Origin: an uncultured Variovorax sp.
GTDB taxonomy: Bacteria > Pseudomonadota > Gammaproteobacteria > Burkholderiales > Burkholderiaceae
Reading direction: 5' to 3'
NCBI GenBank assembly: GCA_946478645.1
Contig: CAMLCW010000030.1
Location: forward strand, 1 to 23,845
DNA length: 23,845 bases
This document shows positions 8,035 to 10,444 of this stretch, piece by piece. The position numbers were made by a program, and so were the translations under genes. The notes beneath the pieces are model-generated. The model saw nothing but the letters and a program-made list of their open reading frames with translations, had not been told where the DNA came from and made no database searches. The first letter of the stretch is position 1. Every line of letters starts with the position of its first letter.

Positions 8035-9306
8035 TCAGAAACGCGTGACGGGCATCTCGGCGTCGGTCTTGCTCGGCGCGTACTTGCCGAGTTCCCACTT
8101 CGCGATCGCATTGCGGTGCACTTCGTCCGGACCGTCGGCAAAGCGCAGCGTGCGCGCGCCGGCATAGGCGTAGGCGAGCGGGAAGTCGTCGCACATGCCG
8201 CCGCCGCCGTGCACCTGCATGGCCCAGTCGATCACCTGGCAGGCCATGCTCGGCGCCACCACCTTGATCATCGCGATCTCGTTCTTCGCGACCTTGTTGC
8301 CGGCCACGTCCATGAGCCAAGCGGCCTTCAAGGTCAGCAGGCGGGCCATGTCGATCTTGCAGCGCGCTTCGGCGATGCGCTCCTGCGTCACGGTCTGCGA
8401 GGCGACGGTCTTGCCGAAGGCCACGCGCGAGGAGGCGCGCTTGCACATCAGCTCGAGCGCGCGTTCGGCCAGGCCGATCAGGCGCATGCAGTGGTGGATG
8501 CGTCCGGGGCCGAGACGTCCCTGGGCGATTTCGAAGCCGCGGCCTTCGCCGAGCAGGATGTTGTCGACGGGCACGCGCACGTTCTCGAAGTACATCTCGA
8601 CGTGGCCATGCGGTGCGTCGTCATAGCCCATCACGTTGAGCGGACGCACGATGCGGATGCCCTTGGTGTCGGCCGGCACGATCACCATGCTCTGCTGCGA
8701 GTGGCGCGGCGCGTCGGGGTCGCTCTTGCCCATGGTGATGAAGACCGCGCAGCGCGGGTCGGCCGCGCCAGAGATCCACCACTTGTGGCCGTTGATCACG
8801 TACTCGTTGCCCTGGCGCTCGATGCGCGTCGAGATGTTGGTGGCGTCGCTGGAGGCGACTTCGGGCTCGGTCATCGCGAAGGCCGAGCGGATCTGGCCCT
8901 CGAGCAGCGGCTTGAGCCAGCGCGCCTTGATGGCGTCGGAGCCGTAGCGGGCAATCGTCTCCATGTTGCCGGTGTCGGGTGCCGAGCAGTTGAAGACCTC
9001 CGACGCCCATTGCACGCGCCCCATGAGCTCGGCCAGCGGTGCGTATTCCTGGTTGGTGAGACCCGCGCCTTCGTAGCCCGAGGCCGCGGCGCTGTCGACC
9101 GGCAGGAACAGGTTCCAGAGGCCCTGGGCCCTGGCTTTTTCCTTGAGCTTCTCGACCGTGTTGAGCGCCGTCCAGCGCTTGCCGGCCGCCGTGTTGGCGG
9201 CCAGTTCGGCCGAGTACTCCGCTTCGGCCGGAAAGATGTAGTCGTCCATGAACGCGCTGACGCGCTTCTGCAGTTCTTTGGTCTTGGCCGAGTATTCGAA
9301 GTCCAT
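8035..9306 (-). CDS. ACAD10/11-like acyl-CoA dehydrogenase family protein
   Basis: The 423-residue flavoprotein has the three-domain acyl-CoA dehydrogenase architecture: an N-terminal helical domain, a central barrel with FAMTEPEVASSDATNI and GHKWWISGA, and a C-terminal helical domain with the MQVHGGGGM flavin segment. Near the end, ADGPDEVHRNAIA takes the place of the YEGT motif of classical enzymes, so the catalytic Glu position is Asp391. I recall the same ADGPDEVH signature from ACAD11-type proteins. That points to the subfamily working with an APH-like kinase on 4-hydroxyacyl-CoAs rather than to a plain fatty acid dehydrogenase. AGGAGA lies just upstream of the ATG at 9306. The kinase gene ends 31 bases before it on the same strand. 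Subfamily call firm; substrate inferred. Confidence 0.88.
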   Translation of the reverse strand: MDFEYSAKTKELQKRVSAFMDDYIFPAEAEYSAELAANTAAGKRWTALNTVEKLKEKARAQGLWNLFLPVDSAAASGYEGAGLTNQEYAPLAELMGRVQWASEVFNCSAPDTGNMETIARYGSDAIKARWLKPLLEGQIRSAFAMTEPEVASSDATNISTRIERQGNEYVINGHKWWISGAADPRCAVFITMGKSDPDAPRHSQQSMVIVPADTKGIRIVRPLNVMGYDDAPHGHVEMYFENVRVPVDNILLGEGRGFEIAQGRLGPGRIHHCMRLIGLAERALELMCKRASSRVAFGKTVASQTVTQERIAEARCKIDMARLLTLKAAWLMDVAGNKVAKNEIAMIKVVAPSMACQVIDWAMQVHGGGGMCDDFPLAYAYAGARTLRFADGPDEVHRNAIAKWELGKYAPSKTDAEMPVTRF

Positions 9307-9337
9307 CGTTTGTCTCCTGGTGGGTGTGGGCGCTTGT

Positions 9338-10444
9338 CTATGCCTTTTGGGCAAACTGCCAGGCCATTTCGGCCATGGGGCGAGCGCCGCGCGCCGAGGC
9401 CACGGCTTGCTCGCTCGATGCGGTGCCGGCCTCGACCCGTTTGGCGATGCCTTGCAGGATCGCGGCCATGCGGAACAGGTTGTAGGCCAGGTAGAAGTTC
9501 CAGTCGGGCACGAGCGCCTCGGGCGTCGCGATGCGCGTGCGCTCGCAGTAGCGGCGGATGTACTCGCTTTCGGTGGGAATGCCGAGCGCGGCCACATCGA
9601 CACCGCCGAGGCCGCGGCCGGTGGAAGGCGGCATGTGCCAGGACATGCAGTGGTAGCTGAAGTCGGCCAGCGGGTGGCCCAGCGTTGAAAGCTCCCAGTC
9701 GAGCACCGCGATGATCCGCGGCTCGGTGGGGTGGAACATCACGTTGTCGAGGCGGTAGTCGCCATGGACGATCGAAATCTTGCTTTCGTCGCGCGCGCTC
9801 GCCGGCATGTGCGCGGGCAGCCAGTCGATCAGCCGCTCCATCGCCTCGATGGGCCGCGAGAGTTCGCCGGCACCGTCGGCCGATGCCTTGTACTGCTTGC
9901 TCCAGCGGCCGATCTGGCGTTCGAAGTAGTTGCCGGGCTTGCCATAGCCGCCCAGGCCGCGGCCGGCGAAGTCGACGGTGTGCAGCGCCGCGATCACGCG
10001 GTTCATCTCGTCGTAGTAGGCCGCGCGCTCGGCGTTGGTGAGGCCGGGCAGCGACTGGTCCCAGAGCACGCGGCCCTGCATGAATTCCATCACGTAGAAG
10101 GCGCGCCCGATGACGGCTTCGTCCTCGCACAGGCAGTACATGCGCGGCACGGGCACGTCGGTGCCGGCCAGTCCGCTCATCACCTTGAACTCGCGCTCCA
10201 CCGCATGCGCCGAAGGCAGCAGCTTGGCGACGGGGCCCGGCTTGGCGCGCATGACGTAGCTGCGCTTCGGCGTGACGAGCTTGTAGGTCGGGTTGGATTG
10301 CCCGCCCTTGAACATCTCGACCGCGAGCGGCCCTTCGAAACCATCGAGGTTTGCCGCGAGCCAGGCCGCGAGCGTCTCGACGTCGAAGGCATGCTGCGCC
10401 GAGACCGCGCGGGTACCGATGAAATTGGAGAAGTCCTGGCTCAT
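9338..10444 (-). CDS. APH-like phosphotransferase, ACAD10/11 kinase-domain type (candidate 4-hydroxyacyl-CoA kinase)
   Basis: The 368-residue protein has the aminoglycoside/choline kinase fold. A glycine-rich FKGGQSNPTYKL (45-56) stands at the nucleotide loop, VMRAKPG (64-70) has the probable ATP-contacting Lys68, and the Brenner motif HGDYRLDN has Asp229 as catalytic base and Asn234. DWE (249-251) has the metal-binding Asp249. The GGQSNPTY loop and the LDWELSTLGHPLADFSY stretch are typical of the N-terminal kinase domain of animal ACAD10/ACAD11 and of LvaA-type kinases, not of antibiotic phosphotransferases. It starts one base after the Crp/Fnr stop (TGA, C, ATG), so it is tightly coupled to the regulator. 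Fold sure; substrate inferred. Confidence 0.87.
   Translation of the reverse strand: MSQDFSNFIGTRAVSAQHAFDVETLAAWLAANLDGFEGPLAVEMFKGGQSNPTYKLVTPKRSYVMRAKPGPVAKLLPSAHAVEREFKVMSGLAGTDVPVPRMYCLCEDEAVIGRAFYVMEFMQGRVLWDQSLPGLTNAERAAYYDEMNRVIAALHTVDFAGRGLGGYGKPGNYFERQIGRWSKQYKASADGAGELSRPIEAMERLIDWLPAHMPASARDESKISIVHGDYRLDNVMFHPTEPRIIAVLDWELSTLGHPLADFSYHCMSWHMPPSTGRGLGGVDVAALGIPTESEYIRRYCERTRIATPEALVPDWNFYLAYNLFRMAAILQGIAKRVEAGTASSEQAVASARGARPMAEMAWQFAQKA

What the first reader, a model, noticed from the sequence alone, without database searches (positions are those of the whole stretch)
8035..10444. Split ACAD10/ACAD11 module: adjacent kinase and acyl-CoA dehydrogenase predicted to process 4-hydroxyacyl-CoAs
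The APH-fold kinase (HGDYRLDN, DWE) and the acyl-CoA dehydrogenase with the ADGPDEVH motif are neighbours, 31 bases apart, on one strand. In animals the same two domains are fused in ACAD10 and ACAD11, which handle 4-hydroxy acids by phosphorylating the 4-hydroxyl and then eliminating phosphate. In Pseudomonas putida the related LvaA and LvaC act this way in levulinate degradation. A 3-hydroxyacyl-CoA dehydrogenase and a hydratase-like gene lie just upstream on the same strand, so the products could enter beta-oxidation. No LvaB-like small protein or CoA ligase is seen, so the substrate may differ from levulinate. Pairing and motifs are seen; chemistry is inferred.
Basis: partly seen in the sequence, partly recalled or inferred. 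Interest (0 to 1): 0.72.

Follow-up and report, generated by a model that had tools for sequence, protein, structure and literature searches.

The report
Bacterial 4-hydroxy-acid kinase and dehydrogenase pair
Two neighbouring genes of a Variovorax-like bacterium look like the separated halves of the animal enzyme ACAD11 and very probably strip the 4-hydroxyl from CoA-bound 4-hydroxy fatty acids by phosphorylation and phosphate elimination, a chemistry already shown for bacterial relatives.

Summary
In detail: kinase (9338-10444, minus) and acyl-CoA dehydrogenase (8035-9306, minus) are 31 bases apart. Both match ACAD11 far better than ordinary kinases or dehydrogenases. The published ACAD11 pocket residues R626, R631, H634, R637, D753 and kinase residues R176, D220, N225 are conserved. 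Among 178 distinct homologues, all 131 kinase-adjacent dehydrogenases carry that pocket; of 14 non-adjacent ones under 40% identity, one does. The pair is most likely a two-gene ACAD10/11-type module for 4-hydroxyacyl-CoAs. That kind is known: a Burkholderia kinase and dehydrogenase each replaced the matching ACAD10 domain in vitro (PMC11342911). Corrections: a Crp/Fnr regulator between 'hydratase' and kinase was missed; the order HCDH-crotonase-Crp-kinase-ACAD is kept in 80 of 80 best-matching named loci. The 'hydratase' falls in the alternative oxepin-CoA hydrolase family, and the window copy lacks an aspartate that 92 of 93 aligned rows have, so its beta-oxidation role is unproven. Substrate and regulation are unknown. 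A new member of a known kind, modest interest.

The parts
8035..9306 (-). Acyl-CoA dehydrogenase of the ACAD10/11-LvaC subfamily, 423 aa; predicted phosphate-eliminating enzyme on 4-phosphoacyl-CoA
   Evidence: Pfam; mouse ACAD11 462 bits, MCAD 145 bits; RRHRD pocket; tree
9338..10444 (-). APH-fold kinase, 368 aa; predicted 4-hydroxyacyl-CoA 4-kinase
   Evidence: APH; 3dxp 541 bits, mouse ACAD11 267 bits; R84, R176, D220, N225 positions; tree
9307..9337 (-). 31-base gap between kinase stop and ACAD start; no room for an LvaB-like gene
10446..11165 (-). Crp/Fnr-family regulator, 239 aa, one base upstream of the kinase; in 80 of 80 named loci
11221..12000 (-). Crotonase-family protein, 259 aa, NCBIfam 'oxepin-CoA hydrolase, alternative type' (370 bits, cut-off 300)
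12041..13561 (-). 3-hydroxyacyl-CoA dehydrogenase, long form related to PaaH, 506 aa

Best explanation
The kinase transfers the gamma-phosphate of ATP to the 4-hydroxyl of a 4-hydroxyacyl-CoA. The neighbouring FAD-dependent ACAD binds the 4-phosphoacyl-CoA through R/H/R, removes the alpha-proton with its aspartate, transiently oxidises the substrate, loses phosphate and returns the hydride, giving a trans-2-enoyl-CoA without net oxidation and without an electron acceptor. The 3-hydroxyacyl-CoA dehydrogenase, together with a hydratase (the crotonase next to it or another), would then carry the product into beta-oxidation; the Crp/Fnr protein probably controls the five genes. Shown here: gene order, family, residues, conservation. 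Inferred from published relatives: both reactions. Inferred only: substrate chain length, role of the crotonase, regulation.
For: PDB neighbours: kinase to 3dxp (541 bits) and mouse ACAD11 (267 bits), against 47 bits for 3ats; ACAD to mouse ACAD11 (462 bits), against 145 for MCAD. Pocket residues conserved in the window, in 131 of 131 distinct kinase-adjacent homologues, and below 40% identity in 7 of 7 adjacent against 1 of 14 non-adjacent (that one, in L243, lies 797 bases from a kinase). Kinase tree: mouse ACAD11 kinase in the same 53-row clade as the window (support 100); ACAD tree: same 39-row clade (support 99). Five-gene order in 80 of 80 named loci, also where the flanking genes differ. 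Literature: ACAD10/11 chemistry and residues (PMC12440821, abstract and passages; PMC11342911, passages and sections 7 and 13); a B. pseudomallei kinase and ACAD (Q63VL0, Q63VL1) each replace the matching ACAD10 domain in vitro.
Against: No activity was measured for this pair. The human ACAD11 Pro463 said to enlarge the active-site cavity is Ser in the window; homologues have P, S or A (matched to mouse 462 by my own count). The paper's kinase residue R86 does not fall on an Arg in my numbering of the PDB chain; the Arg beside the alphaC Glu is at 84 there, and I used that. The pocket signature also occurs in 34 ACADs with no kinase within 600 bases, so it does not by itself prove the pair. 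No CoA ligase, thiolase, SDR or lactonase lies beside the pair, so nothing local names a 4-hydroxy substrate. Many kinases of the family (11 of 38 at 55-70% identity) have no such ACAD within 1 kb. In L279 and L257 the upstream genes and the kinase are present without an adjacent ACAD.
Confidence: 0.88

Rival explanations
1. [quoted passage not shown]
For: The crotonase scores 370 bits against the 'oxepin-CoA hydrolase, alternative type' model, cut-off 300, a family linked to phenylacetate by mutant fitness (PMC9007349, section 11 read); HCDH scores 446 bits with PaaH, below its 669 cut-off. Of 17 genomes that I chose, paaA is in 15; in 8 of these (G003, G004, G053, G487, G123, G162, G106, G183) no PaaZ passes its cut-off and the crotonase of the kinase cluster is the only family member over cut-off.
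Against: G001 and G002 (Variovorax, near relatives), G175 and G238 carry a full PaaZ and still keep the cluster crotonase; G208 has no paaA match and keeps it. No Paa ring-oxygenase domain is among the 25 window proteins scanned. I know of no phenylacetate step that needs a 4-hydroxyacyl kinase (recalled).
Confidence: 0.15
2. The kinase is an aminoglycoside phosphotransferase or other unrelated small-molecule kinase, and the ACAD an ordinary acyl-CoA dehydrogenase that happens to lie beside it.
For: Pfam names the kinase APH and NCBIfam gives a weak hit to APH(3') (26.8 bits, cut-off 205).
Against: The ACAD11 kinase scores about ten times more bits than the APH(3') model, though by different programs; pairing and pocket are conserved together; the 13 homologues without the pocket are all under 40% identical and none adjoins a kinase.
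Confidence: 0.03
3. The pair uses the same chemistry but on a substrate other than a linear 4-hydroxyacyl-CoA, such as a ring, side-chain or dicarboxylic 4-hydroxy-CoA ester. (This overlaps with the best explanation; it differs in the substrate only.)
For: No ligase, SDR or lactonase beside it, unlike the clusters of L138-L149; the partner crotonase is not a typical hydratase.
Against: The pocket is unchanged from ACAD11; no positive evidence for such a substrate.
Confidence: 0.2

Closest known systems
B. pseudomallei LvaA/LvaC orthologues Q63VL0 and Q63VL1 (PMC11342911)
   Same: Separate kinase and ACAD with consecutive accession numbers (so probably neighbours, inferred), reported closer to ACAD10 than the P. 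putida proteins; each replaces the matching ACAD10 domain on 4-hydroxyhexanoyl-CoA
   Different: Their sequences were not fetched, so identity and gene context were not compared
Mammalian ACAD10 / ACAD11
   Same: Same two domains in the same order; catalytic Asp residues and the phosphate-binding R/H/R conserved; ACAD 54% and kinase 43% identical to mouse ACAD11 by global alignment
   Different: Two proteins instead of one; no HAD domain (ACAD10 has one); Pro463 (human ACAD11 numbering) is Ser
Pseudomonas putida lva operon (LvaA, LvaB, LvaC, LvaD, LvaE)
   Same: Kinase and ACAD of the same families and predicted chemistry
   Different: No LvaB, SDR or CoA ligase nearby; Crp/Fnr instead of LvaR; HCDH and crotonase added; kinase outside the group of L138-L149, which I take for LvaA-like from their gene neighbours
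PDB 3dxp, labelled 'putative acyl-CoA dehydrogenase'
   Same: A solved protein that matches the window kinase over its full length (541 bits) and lies in the window's 17-row clade (support 91)
   Different: Its label names the wrong domain; among 39 papers that hold any of four search terms, 20 listed, the one listed with '3dxp' is about memory materials

Membership tests
ACAD10/11-type 4-hydroxyacyl-CoA module | APH-fold kinase with catalytic Asp and Asn (D220, N225) | tested here: met
   window RRDN at 84/176/220/225; the same in all 229 rows (several loci repeat one place)
ACAD10/11-type 4-hydroxyacyl-CoA module | ACAD with Asp base and R/H/R phosphate pocket (R626, H634, R637, D753) | tested here: met
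   window RRHRD
ACAD10/11-type 4-hydroxyacyl-CoA module | Cavity proline (human ACAD11 Pro463) | tested here: not met
   Ser in the window; P, S and A all occur among bacterial homologues, so it does not define the bacterial enzymes
ACAD10/11-type 4-hydroxyacyl-CoA module | Kinase and ACAD fused in one chain | tested here: not met
   two genes; the Burkholderia and Pseudomonas enzymes are also separate proteins
ACAD10/11-type 4-hydroxyacyl-CoA module | Phosphorylation of 4-hydroxyacyl-CoA and acceptor-free phosphate elimination | not testable with these tools
   needs enzyme assay
lva (levulinate) operon | LvaB between kinase and ACAD | tested here: not met
   31-base gap; LvaB elsewhere was not searched for
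lva (levulinate) operon | LvaD-like SDR and LvaE-like ligase in the cluster | tested here: not met
   no such Pfam domain among the 25 window proteins scanned
lva (levulinate) operon | Kinase clusters with LvaA itself | not tested
   LvaA sequence not obtained; kinases L138, L141, L143, L144, L146-L149, taken as LvaA-like, fall outside the window's 53-row clade
Alternative oxepin-CoA hydrolase (NF046063), crotonase neighbour | Score over the curated cut-off | tested here: met
   370.5 bits, cut-off 300
Enoyl-CoA hydratase, crotonase neighbour | Catalytic glutamate at the E144 site | tested here: not met
   Ser at 115 (S in 89, A in 4 of 93 rows); the site was placed by the GAGF motif, recalled, in line with S118 reported in PMC9007349

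The most novel reading that the evidence does not exclude
The five-gene cluster is a Comamonadaceae-centred pathway of its own: a Crp/Fnr protein, made as part of the operon, senses a CoA- or nucleotide-type signal and switches on a route in which a non-hydratase crotonase and a PaaH-like dehydrogenase work with the 4-hydroxyacyl kinase and eliminating ACAD on a substrate outside the fatty-acid and levulinate routes, such as a ring-opened aromatic or dicarboxylic 4-hydroxyacyl-CoA.
Probability: 0.12. Interest if true: 0.5.

Novelty: new member of a known kind. Interest (0 to 1): 0.33.

Why it matters
It renames a gene that databases call a phosphotransferase or aminoglycoside phosphotransferase, and a solved structure (3dxp) labelled acyl-CoA dehydrogenase, as a probable 4-hydroxyacyl-CoA kinase. 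It shows that a published residue set (R, H, R, D) goes with kinase adjacency even below 40% identity, which would help to tell phosphate-eliminating ACADs from ordinary ones. It also ties this chemistry in Comamonadaceae to a Crp/Fnr regulator and two more catabolic genes, which makes the natural substrate testable by deletion in a soil bacterium.

Tried and rejected
Search for the window's own genome: none held, so a ligase, lactonase or second copy elsewhere in this genome could not be looked for. True LvaA/LvaC: looked for in unnamed relatives by genus and family and in fetched regions; no kinase-small gene-ACAD arrangement was recognised in what I inspected, so kinases beside histidine phosphatase and SDR genes stood in. 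The Rand 2017 paper is not held. Levulinate as substrate: no supporting neighbour. Phenylacetate as sole substrate: tested with the alternative hydrolase, paaA and PaaZ in 17 chosen genomes; 8 fit it, 5 do not. Crp site upstream of HCDH: no exact palindrome was shared by more than 7 of 79 upstream regions and none was found in the window. RB-TnSeq paper on beta-proteobacteria (PMC12543098): a term search for five words found none; the paper was not read. Structure prediction was not run, as 3dxp and ACAD11 are close homologues. The 120 proteins listed of 8000 bore only generic names.

Full report
OBSERVATION. The kinase is 9338-10444 on the minus strand (368 aa), the ACAD 8035-9306 on the minus strand (423 aa); the gap is 31 bases. 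Pfam finds APH (177 bits) and the acyl-CoA dehydrogenase domains. Reading on upstream, the next gene is not the hydratase but a Crp/Fnr regulator (10446-11165), one base before the kinase start; then the crotonase (11221-12000) and the 3-hydroxyacyl-CoA dehydrogenase (12041-13561). The 25 window proteins that I scanned with Pfam hold no CoA ligase, SDR or thiolase.

WHERE IT COMES FROM. The best kinase matches among named genomes are Variovorax at 92-94%. No whole genome is held for the window.

KINASE. The best solved relative is 3dxp (541 bits, full length), then mouse ACAD11 (267 bits), 9o56 (156 bits) and 3ats (47 bits). In a 69-row tree the mouse ACAD11 kinase lies in the same 53-row clade as the window (SH-aLRT 100), apart from the kinases of L138-L149 sampled there. 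Those stand beside His_Phos_1 and SDR genes (Pfam checked for L138 and L147; the others by similarity), as in the Pseudomonas citronellolis lva cluster (PMC6692424, passages), so I take them for LvaA-like. A few kinases inside the 53-row clade also have SDR and weak histidine-phosphatase matches nearby (L176, L177, L286, L295), so gene neighbours do not sort the two types cleanly. The ACAD11 branch is long and several forks are weak, so its exact place is unsure. The true LvaA could not be included.

ACAD. Mouse ACAD11 gives 462 bits, 4hr3 (a 'putative acyl-CoA dehydrogenase') 457, MCAD 145. The residues that bind the 4-phosphate in ACAD11 (R626, H634, R637) and the Asp base D753, with R631, are all present (residues from PMC12440821, passages). 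I tested whether this signature means anything on 178 distinct homologues: 131 lie within 600 bases of a kinase and all 131 carry it; of 47 others, 34 carry it and 13 do not, the 13 all under 40% identical. Under 40% identity 7 of 7 adjacent and 1 of 14 non-adjacent carry it. In a 60-row tree the 47 signature rows are on one side of a branch against the 13 others, but support for that branch is weak (63), while the window and mouse ACAD11 share a 39-row clade at 99. One ACAD10/11 feature is not met: human Pro463 is Ser.

PAIRING. The order HCDH-crotonase-Crp-kinase-ACAD occurs in 80 of 80 named loci. These are the best 80 of 588 kinase matches, mostly Variovorax and other Comamonadaceae with some unnamed MAGs, so they are not independent; but the block holds where the flanking genes change (for example L028, L068, L076-L080). 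I read the surroundings of part of these hits, plus some regions from the family search: 89 distinct kinases whose best match was the window kinase (20 rows whose best match was one of two other kinase types were left out). A pocket-carrying ACAD lies within 1 kb in 10 of 11 at 70% identity or more (4 of the 11 are also among the named loci), 27 of 38 at 55-70%, 16 of 40 below. Among those with 9 kb or more of context, HCDH or crotonase lies upstream in 6 of 7, 8 of 37 and 0 of 28; Crp in 7 of 7, 0 of 37 and 0 of 28. So in this sample kinase-ACAD pairing is wide, the HCDH/crotonase link belongs to part of the order, and Crp only to the window's own clade.

CROTONASE. It passes the NCBIfam model 'oxepin-CoA hydrolase, alternative type' (370.5 bits, cut-off 300). 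The first member was linked to phenylacetate use by mutant fitness and lacks the hydratase side chains (PMC9007349, section 11). The window copy also has Ser at the E144 site. At position 143, 92 of 93 aligned rows have Asp and the window alone has Val. I recall that the same position bears the catalytic Asp of PaaG; that comes from no call. I tested the phenylacetate idea in 17 chosen genomes: paaA in 15, PaaZ over cut-off in 4, the alternative hydrolase over cut-off in 14. Eight genomes fit it (paaA, no PaaZ over cut-off, the cluster crotonase the only family member over cut-off). G001, G002, G175 and G238 have PaaZ and still keep the cluster crotonase, and G208 has it without a paaA match. 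So phenylacetate alone does not explain the gene, but a part in it is not excluded.

MECHANISM. The published cycle (PMC11342911, sections 7 and 13; PMC12440821, passages) is ATP-dependent 4-phosphorylation, then FAD-dependent proton removal, phosphate loss and hydride return, giving a 2-enoyl-CoA without an electron acceptor; the intermediate steps are the authors' proposal. In PMC11342911 the kinase and ACAD of B. pseudomallei each replaced the matching ACAD10 domain on 4-hydroxyhexanoyl-CoA. The accession numbers Q63VL0 and Q63VL1 suggest neighbouring genes; I did not fetch them.

NOVELTY. The pair is a new member of a known kind. In the listings (open-access library; one search listed 10 of 26 papers) I saw no title or abstract start on a Crp-linked five-gene cluster of this make or on levulinate or 4-hydroxy-acid catabolism in Variovorax; subscription papers are mostly not held.

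Noticed in passing
It keeps a phosphate-cassette-like stretch (FGD.A.FD...RTHD) (motif reading recalled).
   Followed up: partly
11569-11574 (-): Crotonase residues 143-144 are Val-Ala in the window where the other 92 of 93 aligned rows have Asp-Gly: a damaged or altered active site, or a sequence error.
   Followed up: partly
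L138-L149: Second kinase type (32-35% to the window's) beside SDR genes (12 of 12 loci) and a histidine phosphatase (10 of 12); in L147-L149 LysR, ACAD, kinase, histidine phosphatase and SDRs stand together, like the P. citronellolis lva cluster.
   Followed up: partly
L178-L203 and L246-L255: In two unnamed genera (probably Pseudomonas, inferred) 25 of 25 and 18 of 18 genomes carry an ACAD of this subfamily; the 26 loci of the first genus show no kinase in about 1.5 kb on either side.
   Followed up: partly
L154, L155, L234-L238, L243: A divergent ACAD group (32-40% to the window's) that still carries the R/H/R/D pocket and lies beside or near kinases: probably more enzymes of this chemistry.
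   Followed up: no
L156, L157, L159, L161, L164-L166, L168, L284: Kinases 56-59% identical to the window's with no pocket ACAD within 1 kb but an oppositely oriented SDR-like match about 1 kb upstream.
   Followed up: no
L203 2766-3677 (-), L295: SMP-30/gluconolactonase-family gene (Pfam SGL) beside the ACAD of L203, and a 58% match to it near the kinase of L295: a hint of lactone substrates.
   Followed up: no
L040, L042: The ACAD gene matches in two separate pieces, perhaps a frameshift or assembly error.
   Followed up: no
L279, L257: Upstream genes and kinase present but no pocket ACAD within 1 kb of the kinase.
   Followed up: no
upstream of HCDH in L020, L024, L034, L043, L051: A box like GACACATTYTGACA 54-56 bases before the HCDH start in 5 of 21 upstream regions compared, not in the window.
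   Followed up: no
plasmid records, e.g. H1-H4: Relatives of the kinase lie on 273 of 72,556 plasmid records, up to 7 places in one listed Novosphingobium record.
   Followed up: no
13695-15885 (-): An MFS transporter and a D-2-hydroxyacid-dehydrogenase-family gene stand upstream on the same strand; no MFS match at that place in many of the 80 loci.
   Followed up: no
1588-2352 (-): 254-aa ORF without a Pfam match at E 1e-5, matched in many of the 80 loci.
   Followed up: no
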